This document shows, piece after piece, positions 9,777 to 17,439 of a stretch of DNA of 50,870 nt. The notes below the pieces were generated by a model. The model had not been told where the DNA came from, did not search any database, and saw only the letters and a list, made by a program, of their open reading frames with translations. The DNA comes from Porticoccaceae bacterium (lineage in GTDB: Bacteria; Pseudomonadota; Gammaproteobacteria; Pseudomonadales; Porticoccaceae): the NCBI GenBank assembly GCA_017858135.1, contig JAFMBY010000007.1, positions 1 to 50,870 on the forward strand. The letters are read 5' to 3'. How positions within the stretch are numbered: position 1 is the first letter of the stretch; each line of letters starts with the position of its first letter. A program made the position numbers and the translations under genes.

Positions 9777-10418
9777 TCAGTTGAGCCCTGAAATATAATT
9801 CGCTATCGCCTTGATTTCTTTATTGCTCAGTCGCTCAGCGACGCCCTGCATAATCTTGGCGTTGGCACCGCTGGCGCGCTCACCACTTTGGTACTTAAGT
9901 AGCTGGCTCTCAATATAGCCTGCATGCTGACCGCCAAGTGCGGGATAACCCGCCGGATCATTGCCTGTACCAGCCGGAGAATGGCAACCGGTGCAGGAGG
10001 GCACGCCAGTCTGCAGATTGCCACCACGATAAATATTTTCGCCAAGCTCCAAGGCTTCATCCGGATCGCTGTAGCCGATCAGAGTGATTTCTTGCGCTCC
10101 CGATATTTGGCGCTGCTGGCCATCGTAGTAAGCCGCCATGTCCTGCAGGTCCTGGTCAGAAGACGCATCGAGCAGGCCCGTCATTTCAACTATGACGCGC
10201 TCGCCAGACTGGATATTCAGCAGCTGACGGTAAAGATATTTTTCACCCAAGCCGGCTAGCTTGGGGAATGAAGAAACCATGCTGTTGCCGTCATTGCCAT
10301 GACAGCCGGCACACATTGCTACTTTGGATGTTCCTGCTGCTGCATCACCAGATGCGAAACCCTGATTAGCTGTAAATGCAGCTACCAGACAAATAATCGT
10401 TAAAAAGCTTTTTTTCAT
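9777..10418 (-). CDS. Diheme cytochrome c4
   Basis: Periplasmic electron carrier with two class I heme domains, expected to pass electrons from the bc1 complex to terminal oxidases such as the caa3-type enzyme encoded further along. It has 213 residues with a signal peptide ending near FASG (about residue 23). Heme motifs are CAGCH (36-40) and CTGCH (142-146), with candidate methionine ligands such as the IMQGV segment near the end. dsbA follows after 58 bp on the same strand. The start codon lies back to back with the engB promoter region. Confidence 0.95.
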
Positions 10419-10456
10419 GGTTAATCAACTCGTGCAATCCGCTAGAATAGGTGTGG

Positions 10457-10482
10457 TCTGTACAGGTACTTTCATCTGTACA
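10457..10482. promoter_or_regulatory. Direct repeat of TCTGTACA between cytochrome c4 and engB
   Basis: TCTGTACA occurs twice (10457-10464 and 10475-10482), 18 bp start to start, in the 142-bp divergent region. Each copy contains the palindrome TGTACA. Near two-turn helical spacing suggests a paired operator. No regulator is assigned. Confidence 0.35.
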
Positions 10483-10560
10483 ATAGCCATGTCGGCTAAA
10501 GCCGGCGCATTATATACCAACATGCGCCAATTCTTACAGCGAGATAATGACCCTTTATCC

Positions 10561-11199
10561 ATGGATTCGACTCATATCGATTATAAGCGCGTAACATTTC
10601 TGACCAGTGCCCCCTCTCTCAGGCAATGCCCTGACGATAGCGGCTGTGAAATTGCCTTTGCCGGGCGCTCAAATGCGGGTAAATCTAGCGCGATCAATAC
10701 GTTGACGCGAACCCGCGGGCTGGCAAGAACCAGTAAAACGCCAGGTCGAACCCAGCTGATTAATTTCTTTGAACTGGCCGGTGGCAAACGTCTGGTTGAC
10801 CTTCCCGGATATGGCTACGCTAAAGTGCCCATCGCGATGAAGCGCGAATGGGACAAGCATCTTGCCGAGTACCTTCAGATGCGCCAGAGTCTGGCGGGCC
10901 TAGTATTGTTGATGGACATTCGCCACCCGCTGCAAGAGTTTGACCTACAGATGCTCAACTGGGCTGCACAGGCGGGGCTACCGGTCCATATCTTGCTAAC
11001 CAAATCGGATAAACTTAAGCGCGGCCCGGCTCAGAGCGCGCTCTTGATGGTTGAACGACATTTGCGCGATATGGATCCAGGCTGCACGCTGCTCAGCGCA
11101 CAGACATTTTCGTCATTAAAGAAGCAGGGGCTGCCAGAACTTGAGTCGGTGTTAGGCCATTGGATGAGCGCAGACTTTATTGATCCCTCTGCTGACTGA
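10561..11199 (+). CDS. engB: Ribosome-biogenesis GTPase EngB/YsxC
   Basis: Essential Era-like GTPase for 50S assembly. From ATG 10561 the protein has 212 residues, the usual size, with G1 GRSNAGKSS (35-43), G3 DLPGYGYAK (80-88) and G4 LLTKSDK. The frame stays open upstream to 10417, but the extra N-terminal residues are not like the family, and the homologous region begins just before VTFLTSAP. No good Shine-Dalgarno is visible, so ATG 10522 is an alternative. It is divergent from cytochrome c4 and convergent with polA, the arrangement seen in Pseudomonas. Confidence 0.93.
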
Positions 11200-11247: not shown

Positions 11248-11278
11248 AAAAAAAGCCCCGGTCCAAAGTGGACCGGGG
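11248..11278 (-). terminator. Strong intrinsic terminator of the sRNA / polA transcript
   Basis: On the minus strand CCCCGGTCC-ACTTT-GGACCGGGG (9-bp perfect stem, 11278-11256) is followed by C and seven T (11254-11248). The plus strand lacks a T-tract after the stem, so polarity is clearly leftward, toward engB. Confidence 0.88.
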
Positions 11279-11351
11279 TCTGCGTTGCCTTGCTTGGGAG
11301 TTTCAGCGTTGCAGTTGCTTAGTTGGGGGAGAGTAAGCAATCATGTCTTGC
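11248..11351 (-). ncRNA. Putative Spot 42/ErsA-position small RNA downstream of polA
   Basis: The 277-bp gap between engB and polA holds no gene, but its minus strand looks like a compact ~104-nt RNA. From the 5' end: a hairpin TTGCTTA / TAAGCAA (11340-11334 with 11321-11315) displaying a 12-nt loop rich in C (CTCTCCCCCAAC); a second exposed CTCCC near 11297-11301, in a loop closed by CTGC / GCAG; then a strong intrinsic terminator. The loop is complementary to Shine-Dalgarno cores (GGGGGAG). Location and orientation are those of E. coli spf (Spot 42) and Pseudomonas ersA, known sRNAs between polA and engB. The primary sequence was not recognised as either, so homology is inferred from position and architecture. 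The 5' end is predicted from the promoter. Confidence 0.62.
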
Positions 11352-11356
11352 ACGTA

Positions 11357-11383
11357 TTAAGACAAGCTGAAATGAAATAGTTC
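11357..11383 (-). promoter_or_regulatory. SigmaE/AlgU-like promoter candidate for the sRNA
   Basis: Minus-strand GAACTA (11383-11378), 15 bp, then TCTTAA (11362-11357) resembles the extracytoplasmic sigmaE/AlgU pattern GAACTT-N15/17-TCtrA. Start would be about 11351-11353. A dyad TGTCTT-N9-AAGACA (11344-11364) overlaps the -10 and start and could be an operator. A sigma70 reading was weaker. Confidence 0.42.
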
Positions 11384-11476: not shown

Positions 11477-14245
11477 CTAGTGCGCCTCATCCCAGTTGTT
11501 ACCTACGCCAACATCCACAACTAATGGAACCAGGAGCTCAGCAGCATTTTCCATGCGCTCACAGAGCCCCTGCTTGATCACATCGAGTTCCGACTCCGGC
11601 ACTTCCAGCACCAATTCATCGTGCACCTGCATAATAATTTTGCTGTTCAAAGCGCTGGACTCGAGCCAGCTTTGCACGCTGATCATCGCCAACTTAATAA
11701 TATCGGCGGCGGTTCCCTGCATCGGCGCATTGATCGCGGTGCGCTCGGCAGCCTGGCGACGCATGCCATTTCTCGAGTTAATTTCCGGCAGATAGAGCCT
11801 GCGGCCAAAGAATGTCTCGACATAGCCTTTTTCAGCGGCACTGTAGCGAATATTGTTCATATAGTTTTGCACCCCCGGATAGCGGGTAAAATAGAGCTCA
11901 ATATATTCGGCCGCCTGTTTGCGGCCAATACCCAGCTGGCGTGCCAGGCCAAAGGCTGACATGCCGTAAATCAGGCCGAAGTTAATCGCCTTGGCACTGC
12001 GGCGCTGATCGCTGGTGACGGCATCCGTCTCGACACCAAAGACCTCGGCAGCGGTGGCGCGGTGGATGTCCTGTCCGGCACTAAAAGCCGCCAGCAAACT
12101 AGGATCCTGTGACAGATGGGCCATAATACGCAGCTCAATCTGTGAGTAATCCGCAGCGACCAATTTACTGCCCGGCGCGGCAATAAAGGCCTGGCGCACT
12201 CGCCGTCCTTCGGCCGTTCGCACCGGAATATTTTGCAGATTGGGATCTGATGACGACAATCGTCCAGTGGCCGTTCCCGCCTGATGGTACGAAGTATGAA
12301 TCCGCCCAGTCACCGGATTGATCATGGTTGGCAACTTGTCAGTATAAGTGGACTTTAATTTGGCCAGACCTCGATGCTCCAATAGAACCTTGGGCAGTGG
12401 ATAATCCAACGCCAGCTCTTGCAGCACTTCTTCCTTGGTCGAGGGGGCGCCTTTGGCGGTTTTCTTCAACACTGGAATCTGCAGTTTTTCAAACAGGATC
12501 TCACCCAGCTGCTTCGGTGAGGCGAGATTAAACTGCTGCCCTGCGAGATCCCAAGCCTGAGTTTCAAGCTCGGCAAGTCGCTCTGACAACTCCTGGCTCT
12601 GCTGGAATAGCAGCGTGTCATCAACCAGCGCACCGGTGCGCTCAATTCGCGACAATACCGGAACTAACGGCAGTTCGATTTCCTCGAACACTTTTTTCAG
12701 TGCTGCCTCACCCGCAACCCTTGGCCACAACACTTGATGGAGGCGCAGGGTAATATCAGCATCTTCGGCGGCGTAGGGCGCAGCCTGCTCAAGTGGTACC
12801 TGATTAAAGGTTATCTGAGCGGCACCTTTGCCGGCGACATCAGCAAATTTAATCGTTTCTTCATTTAGGTAGTTGAGTGCCAAGCTATCCATATCATGGC
12901 GGCTAGCGACCGAGTCGAGGACATAGGATTCAAGCATGGTGTCAAACGCGATACCGCGCAGCGTTATACCGTGCTGGGCCAGTACACTCATATCATACTT
13001 AAGGTTTTGACCTACTTTTGTCAGCGCAGGGTCTTCTAGATATGGTTTGAGGCTGTCGAGCACAAACTCTGGCTTAAGCTGCTCCGGGGCGCCCATATAA
13101 TCGTGGGCAAAGGGAATATAAGCGGCCTCCCCAGGGGCTGTCGAAAGCGAGATACCGACTAACTGTGCACGCATATAGTCGAGACTGGTGGTCTCTGTAT
13201 CCACAGCAACCAAGTCAGCATGGTTGATCTTTTCGATCCAGGCAGTCAATTCTGACTCGGTTAAAACAAGCTGGTAATTTTTGACGATCGCTGGCGCATC
13301 GGCAGCAGCCTCGACTAAATCATCCAGCTTAGACTCTGAGTTGGCCGCCGGCGCTGACTGTTGATTATTGTTTGTCTGAGCCTCTTCAATCCAGGATTTA
13401 AATTCCATATCTTGGAACAAACTCAGTAAAGCCGAATGATCCGGCTCGCCGTTCTTCAGCTCTGAGAGATGCACCGGCATCTCGACATCAGTTTTTATCG
13501 TCGCAAGCTTGTAGGAGAGGTAGGCGAGCTCTTTGTTTTCGGCGAGCTTCGGCGACATGGTCTTGGCGCCACGAAATCCCAATCCAGCGACCTCGTCTAA
13601 GCGCGTGTAAATGTCATCCAAGCCACCGATGCCTTGCAGCAATCCCAGTGCGGTCTTTTCACCAACCCCCGGGACGCCGGGAATGTTGTCTGATTTGTCA
13701 CCCAGCAGGGCGAGGTAATCAATAATCAATTCTGGCGAAATACCAAACTTTTCGATCACCCCTGCCCTATCCATGGTGGTGTTGTTCATGGTGTTAATCA
13801 GGGTGATATGCTCATTCACCAGCTGGGCAATGTCTTTGTCGCCGGTAGAAATAATCACCGGCTGCTCTGCGGCAGTGGCCTGCACAGCTAGCGTGCCAAT
13901 AACATCGTCCGCCTCGACGCCATCGATAATCAACATCGGCAGGCCCATGGCCTGAATAATTTCATGTATCGGCGCTATCTGCTCGCGTAAATCATCCGGC
14001 ATCGGCGGTCGGTGAGCCTTGTAGTCGCTGTAAATCTCATCGCGAAAGGTTTTACCCTTGGCATCAAAAACGACCACCACGGTGCTCTGCGGGTAGTCTT
14101 TCTGCAGACGCCGCATCATATTGATAACCCCTTTTACGGCTCCAGTCGGCTTGCCTTTGCTATTGGTCAGCGGCGGCAAGGCATGGTAAGCACGATAAAG
14201 ATAGGAAGAGCCATCGACGAGGATCAGCGGGGTAGTAGTGTCCAT
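11477..14245 (-). CDS. polA: DNA polymerase I
   Basis: Repair and Okazaki-fragment polymerase, 922 residues from ATG 14245; E. coli PolA is 928. That start is chosen because [20 protein letters not shown] aligns with the family N-terminus, while 15 extra residues upstream do not. Three domains are intact: 5'-3' exonuclease (about 1-290, with GVEADDVIG and [18 protein letters not shown]), 3'-5' proofreading exonuclease ([23 protein letters not shown] and YAAEDADIT give the DxE and downstream Asp ligands), and polymerase ([32 protein letters not shown] and VHDELVLEV). It follows znuA on the same strand and is convergent with engB. Confidence 0.97.
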
Positions 14246-14343
14246 ATTTTCCACAACAGGTAGCGTTAATATTGAGCCTTCAGGATACACGATTTACCTG
14301 AGTCTGTTGATAATTCGTCGGCCTTGAGGGATTGTTGAGCGTC

Positions 14344-15282
14344 TTAAAAGCAGTCTTTAAACTGCGCGACCAACGTCTGCATAAAGTGTCTATAAGCATC
14401 TTCGTTAAGGGGTTGATCCAGACCCTGGAGATCGATCACCGCGATAGGCAGGGACAACTCCTCAGCAATCACCCGAGCATCTCTGTCCGCATATTGCGGT
14501 TCGACAAAGATACAGCTGGCGGCGGACGTTATCGCCGCCTGGCGCAGGCGATATTGGCTTCTGGCGCCCTGACTGGCACCACTGGCATCGCGGATTGAAA
14601 GACCGGATTGCAGGTTGAAGACGCTAGTAAAGTGATCTAGGGCATCGTGGTGAACTAGAAACTGCTTCTCACTCAGGGGCGTCAACACCGCGGCTAGATC
14701 GGCAATTTGATCGGCGCTGATAATTTCTTTGACCGGGAGTTTAAGGCGCTGCTGGATCTCGGCTGCGATTAGATTGGCGTTGTTGGGATTAAGCCAAACG
14801 TGGGGATCTGCTCTTAGCGCACTGTGGGCACTTAATTCGCTATGGGCATTCAACCGGCTGTGGCCATGACCATGAGCGTGGTCACTATCGCCGCCGACAT
14901 TTTTCTGGCGGTCAGTATCTGTGGGCATACTCAGCGGCAACTGCATCACCGTAATACGCTTATTCTGGGGTAGTAATTGCATCGATTTGGCAATGCGGGA
15001 TTCAAACAACTCACCAATCCAAATTATCAGGCCTGCCTGATCAATTTTCTTCAGCGCGGAAACCGGCAGCGACACCTCATGGGCGGACTGCACCGCCGAT
15101 TGCAGATATTCAACTCGAGCCTGATCACCAACGGCGGACTGGGCGATAATTGCCAGGGGTTTAATGGTAGTGATAATCAGCGGTTTGGTTATTTCGGGGG
15201 CGGCAAAAACTATTTGTACCGTCAGGGCGCTGACTAAGGTAACAATTTTTAGTAAATTGTTATAATGTATCATTTTAATCAT
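14344..15282 (-). CDS. znuA: Zinc ABC transporter periplasmic binding protein ZnuA
   Basis: Captures Zn2+ in the periplasm and hands it to ZnuBC. From ATG 15282 it is 312 residues with a signal peptide ending near IVFAA (about 28); 15273 is an alternative start. Cluster A-1 metal ligands are readable as His68 (QSAHEVSL), His161 (DPHVWLN) and His211/212 (LVHHDALDH). Between them is the His/Asp-rich mobile loop typical of zinc-specific members (DHAHGHGHS, then further spaced His to about 153). It is divergent from zur-znuC-znuB across a Zur palindrome, so transcription should rise when zinc is scarce. Confidence 0.94.
   Translation of the reverse strand: MIKMIHYNNLLKIVTLVSALTVQIVFAAPEITKPLIITTIKPLAIIAQSAVGDQARVEYLQSAVQSAHEVSLPVSALKKIDQAGLIIWIGELFESRIAKSMQLLPQNKRITVMQLPLSMPTDTDRQKNVGGDSDHAHGHGHSRLNAHSELSAHSALRADPHVWLNPNNANLIAAEIQQRLKLPVKEIISADQIADLAAVLTPLSEKQFLVHHDALDHFTSVFNLQSGLSIRDASGASQGARSQYRLRQAAITSAASCIFVEPQYADRDARVIAEELSLPIAVIDLQGLDQPLNEDAYRHFMQTLVAQFKDCF
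15258..15272. promoter_or_regulatory. Possible second, weaker Zur site over the znuA start
   Basis: TGTTATA-A-TGTATCA shares 5 of 7 positions with the perfect inverted repeat and sits at the znuA start codons. A low-affinity secondary site is possible; coding constraint is an equal explanation. Confidence 0.3.
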
Positions 15283-15329
15283 TGGCAATAATGCCCCAGA
15301 GCATCGATAACGATGTGAATGAAATTTGT

Positions 15330-15346
15330 ATGTTATATTATAACAT
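15330..15346. promoter_or_regulatory. Zur box controlling znuA and zur-znuCB
   Basis: ATGTTATATTATAACAT is a perfect 17-bp palindrome (8-bp arms, central T) in the divergent znuA/zur gap. It matches the core of the gammaproteobacterial Zur operator as I recall it (TGTTATAnTATAACA). Placement between both starts suits joint repression. Confidence 0.9.
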
Positions 15347-15397
15347 TGCAATTTAATAAAACGTCATAAAACAACACTTAATCAGGCACAGAGCCCC

Positions 15398-15892
15398 ATG
15401 TTGACCAACTCTCGATTAGTTCACCAGCCCCATGATCACGGCCGCTGCATCAACGCTGCCCTAAATCGTGCCGAGGAACTATGCGCCGCCACTAAGGCGC
15501 GGCTAACACCCACGAGAAAATCGGTGCTGCAACTACTCTGGCAGAGCCATCAACCCCTTGGCGCTTATCAGCTGCAAGATCAGCTGGCTAAGCTTTCCGG
15601 CAAATCCATAGCCCCGCCGACGATCTATCGCGCCATTGAATTTCTTCTTCAGCTCGGACTGATTCACCGTATAGCTTCACTCAACGCCTATATCGGCTGC
15701 CCTTTTCCCGGCAGTGACCACAGCAATCTGTTTATGATCTGCAGTCAGTGTGGCAGCGCCGCCGAAGTGGCCCACAACAGCCTTAATGAGCTGCTGCAAA
15801 AAGCCAGCGATAAGGCTAATTTTACACTACAGAGTCAGACCTTGGAGCTTTTTGGGCTATGCCCAAACTGCACCGAACGCCCAGAGAATTGA
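15398..15892 (+). CDS. zur: Zinc uptake regulator, Fur family
   Basis: Zn2+-dependent repressor of the adjacent uptake genes. It has 164 residues: a winged helix (about 30-95, with LTPTRKSVLQLLW and PPTIYRAIEFLLQLGLIHRI) and a dimerisation domain with two CxxC pairs, CSQC (115-118) and CPNC (155-158), which hold the structural zinc. The His-containing N-terminal stretch (HQPHDHGRC) is longer than in some members. It is first in a tight plus-strand operon (znuC starts 4 bp after its stop) and lies next to the Zur palindrome, so it should autoregulate. Confidence 0.94.
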   Translation: MLTNSRLVHQPHDHGRCINAALNRAEELCAATKARLTPTRKSVLQLLWQSHQPLGAYQLQDQLAKLSGKSIAPPTIYRAIEFLLQLGLIHRIASLNAYIGCPFPGSDHSNLFMICSQCGSAAEVAHNSLNELLQKASDKANFTLQSQTLELFGLCPNCTERPEN

Positions 15893-15896
15893 CAAC

Positions 15897-16661
15897 ATGA
15901 CTAAAGCCCTTATTAGACTCGAGCACATCGGCAAATCATTTGGCTCGCGCCCAGTGCTAGAGAATATCTCTATGCAACTAATGCGCGGGGAGATTACCAC
16001 ATTGATTGGGCCCAACGGCGCCGGCAAATCCACTCTGGTGAGAATTATTCTCGGCTTACTAAAGCCCGACAGAGGCTCAGTGCAGCCCTCAGCCGAACTA
16101 AAGATCGGCTATATGCCCCAGAAGATCAATATAGATCCAACCCTGCCGATCTCAACCTGCCGATTTTTACAGCTGGCCAATACCTCCCACAGTGCCTGTC
16201 ATGCCGCACTGGAGAAGGTGGGTATAGGCCATCTGGCAACAGCGCCGGTGCAAACCCTCTCTGGCGGCGAAATGCAGCGCGCCCTGCTGGCGCGGGCGAT
16301 TGTCCGTAATCCCAACTTTTTGGTGCTTGATGAACCAGTGCAGGGGGTCGATGTCACCGGGCAGAATGCGCTGTACTCCATGATTGCCGAACTGAGTAAG
16401 TCGCTTAACTGTGGCGTGCTGATGGTCTCCCATGATCTACACCTGGTGATGTCGGCAACCGACCATGTTATTTGTCTCAATCAGCATATATGTTGCCAGG
16501 GCAATCCCGAGCAGGTCACCCAAGACCAGGCTTATATTGATATTTTTGGCCAGACGACCGCCGTTTATGCCCATCAACATGATCACCAACATAGCATTCA
16601 TGGTGAGGTTTTAGACCAACAGGGCAACCATCAACATGGGGAGGGCTGTCGCCATGACTGA
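15897..16661 (+). CDS. znuC: Zinc ABC transporter ATPase ZnuC
   Basis: Cytosolic ATPase powering zinc import, 254 residues from ATG 15897; the open frame extends upstream into zur but homology begins at MTKALIRLEHIGKSF. Motifs: Walker A GPNGAGKST (38-46), signature LSGGE (121-125), Walker B FLVLDEP (141-147) and switch His179 in VSHD. The last 30 residues are strikingly His-rich (HQHDHQHS, then NHQHGEGCRHD), a metal-binding tail also known in other ZnuC proteins. Its stop overlaps znuB by 8 bp. Confidence 0.95.
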   Translation: MTKALIRLEHIGKSFGSRPVLENISMQLMRGEITTLIGPNGAGKSTLVRIILGLLKPDRGSVQPSAELKIGYMPQKINIDPTLPISTCRFLQLANTSHSACHAALEKVGIGHLATAPVQTLSGGEMQRALLARAIVRNPNFLVLDEPVQGVDVTGQNALYSMIAELSKSLNCGVLMVSHDLHLVMSATDHVICLNQHICCQGNPEQVTQDQAYIDIFGQTTAVYAHQHDHQHSIHGEVLDQQGNHQHGEGCRHD

Positions 16662-17439
16662 TTTTCTGCTCTATGCACTGCTCGCGGGACTGGGGGTTGC
16701 AATGGTTGCCGGTCCTCTCGGCTGCTTTGTTGTCTGGCGACGCATGGCCTATTTTGGAGACACCTTGGCTCACTCGGCCTTGCTGGGGGTGTCGATCGGC
16801 GTATTACTGGGCATCAATATCAGCATTACCGTGGCAGCCATCCCACTGTTGATTGCTCTGGGTTTGGTCTATTTGGAACAGCGCGGTATTTTGTCGCTGG
16901 ATACCTTGCTCGGCATCCTCTCTCACTCCGCGCTGGCAACAGGCCTAGTGCTCATCTCTCTGCTGCCCGATGTGCGGGTCGACCTGATGTCGCTGCTATT
17001 TGGCGATCTGCTCTCGGTGACCATCAATGATCTGTGGCTGATCTATGGCGTCGCGAGCACGGTTGTTTTGCTGTTGCTATGGCTGTGGAAACCGCTCATT
17101 AATATTACCGTGCATGAGGAGTTGGCGAGTGTTGAGGGGGTCAATGTTTCCGCGGTACGCACTGCGCTAATGTTAATCACCGCACTGGTGATTGCCATTG
17201 CTATGAAGATTGTTGGTGTATTGTTGATTACCGCGCTGCTGATTATTCCGGCGGCTACTGCGCGACGCATCAGCAGTACACCGGAGCAGATGGCGGTCAT
17301 CGCCAGCCTGATTGCAATGTTAACCGTGGTGATGGGTTTAGCGATGTCTTGGTATAGCGATACGCCAGCAGGCCCGTCTATCGTGGTCTGTGGCGCGTTA
17401 CTGTTTACCCTTTCACTAGCCGTTCGGCAGCGAAGTTAA
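16654..17439 (+). CDS. znuB: Zinc ABC transporter permease ZnuB
   Basis: Inner-membrane permease of the zinc importer, 261 residues, almost wholly hydrophobic with about eight membrane segments of the ABC-3 family. ATG 16654 is chosen over 16636 because GGGGAGG (16638-16644) lies about 9 bp before it. The segment MAYFGDTLAHSALLGVSIG is the usual cytosolic coupling region. It overlaps znuC by 8 bp and ends tail to tail with sco: the sequence GTTAAC supplies the stop codons of both genes. Confidence 0.94.
   Translation: MTDFLLYALLAGLGVAMVAGPLGCFVVWRRMAYFGDTLAHSALLGVSIGVLLGINISITVAAIPLLIALGLVYLEQRGILSLDTLLGILSHSALATGLVLISLLPDVRVDLMSLLFGDLLSVTINDLWLIYGVASTVVLLLLWLWKPLINITVHEELASVEGVNVSAVRTALMLITALVIAIAMKIVGVLLITALLIIPAATARRISSTPEQMAVIASLIAMLTVVMGLAMSWYSDTPAGPSIVVCGALLFTLSLAVRQRS

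What the first reader, a model, noticed from the sequence alone, without database searches (positions are those of the whole stretch)
11248..11383. Unannotated sRNA at the spf/ersA position with an anti-Shine-Dalgarno loop
The minus strand between polA and engB has a strong terminator, a 7-bp hairpin presenting CTCTCCCCCAAC in its loop, and a second exposed CTCCC. Both would pair with ribosome binding sites. Spot 42 (E. coli) and ErsA (Pseudomonas) sit in this same place and orientation, but the sequence does not look like either. It could be a lineage-specific Hfq-dependent regulator with its own targets.
Basis: partly seen in the sequence, partly recalled or inferred. Interest (0 to 1): 0.7.

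Follow-up and report, generated by a model that had tools for sequence, protein, structure and literature searches.

The report
Stress-type small RNA beside polA
A marine bacterium of the SAR92 group appears to have a small RNA gene, matching no family in the public RNA library, next to its DNA polymerase I gene; it has a cell-envelope-stress type of promoter and a C-rich loop that matches the start regions of outer-membrane nutrient receptors, so it is probably a distant counterpart of the Pseudomonas regulator ErsA.

Summary
Between polA and engB, minus strand, about 11351 to 11248, lies a 104-nt RNA gene: 7-bp hairpin with loop CUCUCCCCCAAC, a second nearly open CUCCC, and a 10-bp terminator with U7. 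A covariance model matches 30 of 30 high-quality genomes of the genus; the pairs covary. It is of the sigmaE/AlgU type; the genome encodes RpoE, RseA and Hfq. The RNA fits neither Spot 42 nor ErsA in Rfam, yet Pseudomonadaceae ErsA (12 of 12 loci) has the same slot, a similar promoter and a C-rich stretch; such a promoter follows polA in 22 of 57 non-enteric and 0 of 22 enteric-type loci. Predicted targets are TonB-dependent receptors: one family has GGGGAGA before its ATG in 34 of 36 leaders read. Against: no coevolution of RNA and target, no clear enrichment of such sites, no transcript data. A new ErsA-like member; expression, sigmaE control and targets are inferred.

The parts
11378..11383 (-). 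-35 element GAACTA of a sigmaE/AlgU-type promoter
   Evidence: GAACT[A/T] in 44 of 44 genus copies at a fixed 14-nt distance from the -10; read in the window
11358..11363 (-). -10 element GTCTTA
   Evidence: GTCTTA, GTCTGA, GTCTAA, GTCAAA, GTCCAA or GTCTAT in 44 of 44 copies
11248..11351 (-). small RNA gene, about 104 nt (5' end inferred from promoter position and conservation)
   Evidence: covariance model R1 hit 11249-11351, 117.6 bits; alignment of nine copies
11315..11340 (-). hairpin 1, 7-bp stem UUGCUUA/UAAGCAA
   Evidence: folds; stem letters change across the genus while a stem is kept
11322..11333 (-). loop CUCUCCCCCAAC, predicted pairing site A
   Evidence: C-run in the loop of a stem of at least 4 bp in 36 of 44 copies; 8-nt match to the start region of a TonB-dependent receptor of the same genome
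11293..11302 (-). AACUCCCAAG, predicted pairing site B
   Evidence: present in eight of the nine copies (the ninth, L009, reads GACUCUCCAAG); exact 10-nt complement CTTGGGAGTT before the ATG of a second TonB-dependent receptor (L317)
11256..11278 (-). terminator hairpin, 10 bp
   Evidence: covarying helix, 97.0% of cells paired
11248..11254 (-). U7 tail of the terminator (possible Hfq contact, inferred)
   Evidence: sequence
11477..14290 (-). polA, upstream neighbour on the same strand
   Evidence: NCBIfam PRK05755 / TIGR00593
10417..11199 (+). engB (yihA/ysxC), convergent downstream neighbour
   Evidence: NCBIfam TIGR03598

Best explanation
A real, independently transcribed trans-acting small RNA, the positional and functional counterpart of Pseudomonas ErsA in the SAR92 clade. 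Proposed working: under envelope stress RpoE (sigmaE/AlgU type) transcribes it from the conserved GAACTA-N14-GTCTTA promoter; Hfq binds its U-tail; the loop CUCUCCCCC and the second stretch AACUCCCAAG pair with G-rich start regions, above all those of TonB-dependent outer-membrane receptors, and block ribosome entry, lowering outer-membrane protein synthesis. Shown by comparison: conservation of gene, promoter motif, hairpin and terminator; presence of RpoE, RseA and Hfq genes; complementarity to a conserved receptor start region. Inferred: transcription, sigmaE dependence, Hfq dependence, repression and targets.
For: Conservation: 30 of 30 high-quality genus genomes at E up to 1. Synteny: of the 30 genus loci L011-L040, 28 show both polA and engB; L029 shows engB only and L030, on a short contig, polA only; the 13 short regions L270-L282 were not checked for neighbours. 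Covariation: 13 of 17 pairs with changes on both sides, 66 such cells against 21.8 in shuffles (on an alignment fitted to the structure). Promoter: 44 of 44 copies; a similar element, GAACT[A/T]-N15-GTC, lies before rpoE in 27 of the 30 rpoE loci read, of 47 genomes with a match. RpoE 307.9 bits against cut-off 236.15, RseA, Hfq 102.5 bits against 61.7. Named loci, GAACTW-N13..17-GTCNNA within 150 nt after polA: 22 of 57 non-enteric (shuffle mean 0.07, most 2; 0 of 57 on the opposite strand), 0 of 22 enteric-type; 16 of the 22 have no R2 match at E up to 0.001. Pseudomonadaceae: RF01719 ErsA in 12 of 12 loci, with GAAC(T/C)-N16/17-[GC]TC and a C-rich stretch. Targets: one receptor family keeps GGGGAGA next to its ATG in 34 of 36 genomes compared, although the protein falls to 52-55% identity and the rest of the leader changes; RNA-leader duplexes average -21.15 kcal/mol against -12.64 for shuffled RNAs; receptor leaders in the own genome carry GGGG or GGGAG in 11 of 23 against 19 of 180 other sampled ORFs, Fisher p 5e-5 (a motif chosen after seeing the leaders).
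Against: No transcript data. The spacer is N14 in every copy, one shorter than before rpoE (N15) and two shorter than in ErsA (mostly N16), so another ECF sigma factor could be the user (11 matches to the RpoE model in the genome); the own genome's rpoE leader is one of 3 of 30 without a pattern match. Matched RNA-receptor pairs are not better than swapped ones (-21.15 against -22.58 kcal/mol; 2000 of 2000 swaps at least as good): no coevolution signal. The receptor preference by duplex energy is weak: loop A p 0.048, with 57 of 200 shuffled loops as good; loop B p 0.21, with 17 of 200. The canonical AGGAG is not enriched (1 of 23 against 18 of 180), and the background sample is not random. 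GGGGGAG before ATG: 13, 23, 9 and 8 sites against 8, 11, 10 and 10 for the reversed control in four genomes. Two of 36 genomes lack the receptor G-tract, and 6 genomes with the RNA (G007, G009, G013, G029, G063, G064) have no receptor match at E 1e-60. The receptor element is itself a hairpin and could be kept for a reason of its own.
Confidence: 0.65

Rival explanations
1. It is only the 3' untranslated region and terminator of polA; the C-rich hairpin has no role in trans.
For: It begins about 125 nt after the polA stop on the same strand, and its terminator is the only one that the scan found in the gap. A 3'UTR-derived sRNA could still act in trans.
Against: A promoter motif at invariant spacing stands just upstream in 44 of 44 copies; several Porticoccaceae outside the genus have two or three tandem copies, unexpected for a mere terminator; the loop C-run is as conserved as the terminator.
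Confidence: 0.13
2. A real sRNA, but not sigmaE-driven: a housekeeping or catabolite-type regulator like Spot 42, or one under another ECF factor.
For: Spacer N14 differs from N15 of the rpoE promoters of the genus; further ECF-like matches in the genome; the Spot 42 model aligns end to end, though at 17.6 bits against a cut-off of 80.
Against: The sigma-70 scan found no site on the minus strand; the motif is of the sigmaE type and resembles that of ErsA, whose sigma22 dependence is published (PMC7565897, passages); 0 of 22 enteric-type loci have the strict motif, though one of them (L174, Paraferrimonas) has a looser form.
Confidence: 0.16
3. A decoy or protein-binding element, for example a C-rich RNA that titrates G-rich RNAs or a protein, rather than a base-pairing repressor of receptors.
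For: No coevolution signal between RNA and receptor leader; the receptor leader forms its own hairpin.
Against: Two separate C-rich stretches match receptor leaders; known RNAs at this locus work through pairing or through matching C- and G-rich motifs (ErsA: PMC7264166, sX13: PMC3771888; passages).
Confidence: 0.06

Closest known systems
ErsA / Pseudomon-1 (RF01719), Pseudomonas
   Same: Same slot and strand after polA; GAACT-type promoter with a GTC- or CTC-type -10; C-rich stretch; terminator; an outer-membrane protein (OprD) is a published ErsA target (PMC7264166 and PMC8395346, passages)
   Different: No Rfam match; genus model R2 finds none of the 12 Pseudomonadaceae loci at E up to 1; the C-rich loop is in a 5'-proximal hairpin here, in the terminator hairpin in the ErsA folded; spacer N14 against N16
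Spot 42 (RF00021), enteric bacteria
   Same: Same slot and strand; similar size; G/C-rich terminator
   Different: 17.6 bits against cut-off 80; no strict promoter motif in 22 enteric-type loci
sX13, Xanthomonadaceae
   Same: Downstream of polA; C-rich loops; G-rich motifs near start codons of targets (PMC3771888, passages)
   Different: Three stems with C-rich loops, Hfq-independent, reported only from Xanthomonadaceae (same passages); no Rfam match of that name here (that Rfam holds an sX13 model is recalled)
Alphaproteobacterial alpha-r7 RNAs
   Same: polA locus, three stem-loops, C-rich motifs, as told in PMC3771888 (passage)
   Different: Not compared here
MicA / RybB of enteric bacteria (recalled)
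   Same: sigmaE-driven RNAs that repress outer-membrane proteins (recalled)
   Different: Other loci and sequences; not tested beyond the Rfam scan

Membership tests
ErsA / Pseudomon-1 (RF01719) | Score above the Rfam cut-off (50 bits) | tested here: not met
   0 matches at gathering score; RF01719 not listed up to E 10; positive control 12 of 12 Pseudomonadaceae loci hit
ErsA / Pseudomon-1 (RF01719) | Between polA and engB, on the polA strand | tested here: met
   slot of ErsA from PMC8575079 (passage)
ErsA / Pseudomon-1 (RF01719) | sigma22/sigmaE-type promoter | tested here: inconclusive
   GAACT-N14-GTC in 44 of 44 copies, but the spacer is shorter than in ErsA (N16); dependence untested
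ErsA / Pseudomon-1 (RF01719) | Hfq-dependent pairing with mRNAs | not testable with these tools
   Hfq is encoded; complementarity only
Spot 42 (RF00021) | Score above the Rfam cut-off (80 bits) | tested here: not met
   17.6 bits, E 0.44; positive control: 5 of the 8 enteric-type loci scanned hit
Spot 42 (RF00021) | Slot between polA and engB, polA strand | tested here: met
sX13 | Three stable stems with apical C-rich loops | tested here: not met
   One C-rich hairpin loop, one nearly open C-rich stretch and a terminator loop without C-run

The most novel reading that the evidence does not exclude
The polA-downstream slot of Gammaproteobacteria is one ancient envelope-stress small-RNA locus: outside the enteric lineages its sigmaE-type promoter and C-rich pairing sites are kept while the RNA body is rebuilt beyond recognition (ErsA in Pseudomonas, this RNA in SAR92, duplicated in Porticoccus and kin), and Spot 42 is the enteric branch that lost the stress promoter and was rewired to carbon control.
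Probability: 0.35. Interest if true: 0.7.

Novelty: new member of a known kind. Interest (0 to 1): 0.52.

Why it matters
SAR92 bacteria are common heterotrophs of productive surface seas (recalled). Searches of the held library for SAR92 with 'small RNA' (4 papers), SAR92 with 'sRNA' (1 paper) and Porticocc- with 'sRNA' (2 papers) list no paper whose title or abstract start concerns a small RNA of these bacteria; the papers were not opened. If right, the finding links envelope stress to the receptors with which these bacteria take up nutrients. [quoted passage not shown] The promoter survey gives that question a testable form.

Tried and rejected
Small peptide in the RNA: an ATG at 11344-11342 opens a 13-codon frame in the window, but copies in relatives have length changes in the loop that shift the frame (read by eye); rejected.

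Rfam chance matches (ylbH, PyrR, L20 leader, anti-hemB and others): all below their cut-offs; rejected.

R1 hits in the order search outside the family: 10 of the 26 genomes; none of these loci (L046, L047, L049, L050, L052-L055, L057, L058) shows polA or engB, nor does L062, a second hit in a genus genome. Treated as chance and not counted.

Coevolution of RNA and receptor leader: tested with swaps and not found. One oddity, read by eye: the hairpin AUCUCCCCCGAGAU of one subclade is the exact reverse complement of the receptor element ATCTCGGGGGAGAT of other subclades; this may be why swaps score better. Unexplained.

Duplex-energy ranking: among 184 sampled ORFs of the own genome the receptor ranks third by loop duplex energy; an ETF-ubiquinone oxidoreductase leader has a 10-nt match and was not followed up.

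Second receptor (L317): found in 9 of 48 genus genomes at E 1e-70. Its exact 10-nt site-B complement stands only in the own genome; one relative (L335) differs by one letter and the other seven show other GGGAG-type leaders.

Alignment A1 mixed strands and was not used; redone. An earlier count gave the ErsA spacer as N15; one search shows N16.

Covariation was counted on an alignment that leans towards the structure (A4 is fitted to R1) and not repeated on an independent alignment of that size.

Full report
What is there. The 277-bp gap between polA (11477-14290, minus) and engB (10417-11199, plus) holds on the minus strand, in order: GAACTA (11383-11378), 14 nt, GTCTTA (11363-11358), an RNA from about 11351 with hairpin 1 (11340-11315; loop CUCUCCCCCAAC), a nearly open AACUCCCAAG (11302-11293), and a 10-bp terminator ending in U7 at 11248. 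The described features are correct, and the fold is better than shuffles (z -3.18, 1 of 200; z -2.05, 6 of 200, for a longer stretch).

Conservation. A DNA search found it in 9 of 56 relatives, the own genome included. A covariance model from these nine (R1) matched 44 of 50 genomes of the genus at E up to 1, and 30 of 30 of the high-quality ones. In the order, 26 of 390 genomes matched at E up to 0.1: 16 of the own family and 10 others, and none of those ten lies by polA or engB. The nearest named relatives by polA are titled Pseudomonadales, Porticoccaceae or SAR92 clade; a genus genome (G004) has a contig of the same length, 19,946 bases, as the SAR92-clade record JABBBH010000047. On the 44 aligned copies of A4 (42 distinct; one locus twice, L282 left out by the threshold), 88.9% of cells pair against 78.6% in shuffles, and 66 cells change on both sides against 21.8. 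In individual folds of 44 copies, one per genome, 36 put the C-run in the loop of a stem of 4 bp or more, with different stems: UUGCUUA/UAAGCAA, CAUAUUCU/AGAGUAUG, AUCUC/GAGAU, AUUCUC/GAGAAU.

Promoter. GAACT[A/T]-N14-GTC is present in 44 of 44 copies. The genome encodes RpoE above cut-off, with RseA behind it, and Hfq. Before rpoE the genus has a similar element with N15 in 27 of 30 loci read, but not in the own genome by the same pattern. So the type of promoter is fairly clear; which sigma factor uses it is not.

The same slot elsewhere. In 30 genomes that I chose for comparison, 12 of 12 Pseudomonadaceae loci carry RF01719 ErsA, with GAAC(T/C)-N16/17-[GC]TC and CTTCCCCCTCCCC-like stretches, which in the one folded lie inside the terminator hairpin. 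One locus of another family (L072) matches RF01719 at 32.3 bits, E 0.019, below the cut-off of 50; the other ten loci of that call gave no such match. Of 79 named loci with 150 nt after polA, 22 of 57 non-enteric ones have the motif on the polA strand (shuffle mean 0.07), and 0 of 22 of the enteric, Haemophilus and Shewanella-type group; the grouping was mine, from organism names. Six of the 22 are loci with an R2 match at E up to 0.001, the other 16 are not. As a control, 2 of 912 windows over the first 2400 nt of these loci match; these windows are mostly polA and what precedes it, but in a few short loci include the gap itself. With a looser pattern one enteric-type locus (L174) also matches. 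35 of 57 non-enteric loci do not match; several of these have very short gaps, and in some Porticoccaceae an insertion moves the RNA beyond 150 nt. Five of eight enteric-type loci scanned carry Spot 42 above cut-off. R2, built from A4, reaches other Porticoccaceae, with two or three tandem matches in several, three in a Porticoccus MAG, but none of the 12 ErsA loci. So homology of sequence with ErsA is not shown; common position, promoter type and C-rich character are.

Targets. GGGGGAG shortly before ATG was sought in four genomes: 53 sites, of which the 30 delivered as loci were inspected. Among these, apart from the sRNA's own complement, the site found in all four lies before a TonB-dependent receptor. 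Over the genus, 39 of 48 genomes have a match to this receptor at E 1e-60. Of the 29 readable leaders (a thirtieth reads N), 24 have ATCTC-G5/6-AGAT right before the start, 3 a variant TTCTCTA/TCTAA-GGGG-AGAA form, 2 neither; eight further primary leaders are (2 of the first form, 6 variants), and most remote paralogs there lack the element. For 36 genomes I had both RNA and leader (of the 39, G058 has no RNA match, the leader of G032 is unreadable, G011 has only a remote paralog); 34 of 36 have GGGGAGA next to the ATG (counted from its listing). Six genomes have the RNA but no receptor match. The RNAs pair with these leaders better than mononucleotide-shuffled RNAs (-21.15 against -12.64 kcal/mol on average), but swapped pairs do as well or better in 2000 of 2000 trials, so there is no species-by-species coevolution. 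In the own genome, 11 of 23 receptor leaders have GGGG or GGGAG against 19 of 180 other ORFs (p 5e-5); GGGG alone 8 against 14 (p 0.0009), GGGAG alone 6 against 8 (p 0.002), any GGG 13 against 41 (p 0.001), AGGAG 1 against 18 (p 0.91), GGAG 9 against 43 (p 0.096). This is post hoc: the leaders were seen first, one of 24 receptors was dropped as truncated, start codons were chosen by my own rule in both sets, and the background comes from about 10% of the genome, partly contigs picked because they carried earlier hits. Duplex energies separate the sets only weakly. One receptor (L317) has the exact 10-nt complement of the second stretch, not kept in relatives.

Literature seen, passages only. 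ErsA: PMC7565897, PMC8575079, PMC7264166, PMC8395346, PMC5819304: sigma22-dependent, polA-engB gap, Hfq-dependent for several targets, represses oprD. sX13: PMC3771888. Pseudomon-1 is listed as RF01719 in PMC2864571. PMC3349714 held none of the terms sought. The searches that name SAR92 or Porticocc- with small RNA or sRNA are (4, 1 and 2 papers, listings only); one search was too broad to tell. Other searches concerned ErsA and Spot 42.

Verdict. It matches no Rfam family but is a known kind of regulator. The wider pattern at polA is suggestive and not proven here.

Noticed in passing
L041, L042, L071 (two matches each), L102 and L067 (three), L277 (two): Tandem copies of the RNA, roughly 130-200 nt apart, between polA and engB in Porticoccaceae outside the genus and in one genus member, as in multi-copy sRNAs.
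   Followed up: partly
L240-L269 and L283-L290, leader directly before ATG: ATCTCGGGGGAGAT, a self-complementary element with a G loop, is kept before most copies of a TonB-dependent receptor gene while the surrounding leader diverges; it may be a cis-element of its own.
   Followed up: partly
L037-L039, L043, L270 (sRNA hairpin): In one subclade the sRNA hairpin AUCUCCCCCGAGAU is the exact reverse complement of the receptor element of the other subclades, while its own receptor leader reads TTCTCTAGGGGAGAA or similar.
   Followed up: no
L308, just before 9506: Ten-nucleotide match to the sRNA loop region shortly before the start of an ETF-ubiquinone oxidoreductase gene; possible further target.
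   Followed up: no
L072, 2801-2924: Sub-threshold ErsA (RF01719) match, 32.3 bits, after polA in another family of the order; may bridge ErsA and its diverged counterparts.
   Followed up: no
window 14344-17439: What looks like a zinc uptake cluster (ZnuA-like, Zur/Fur-like, ABC ATPase, permease) lies beyond polA; named by eye from the ORF translations only.
   Followed up: no
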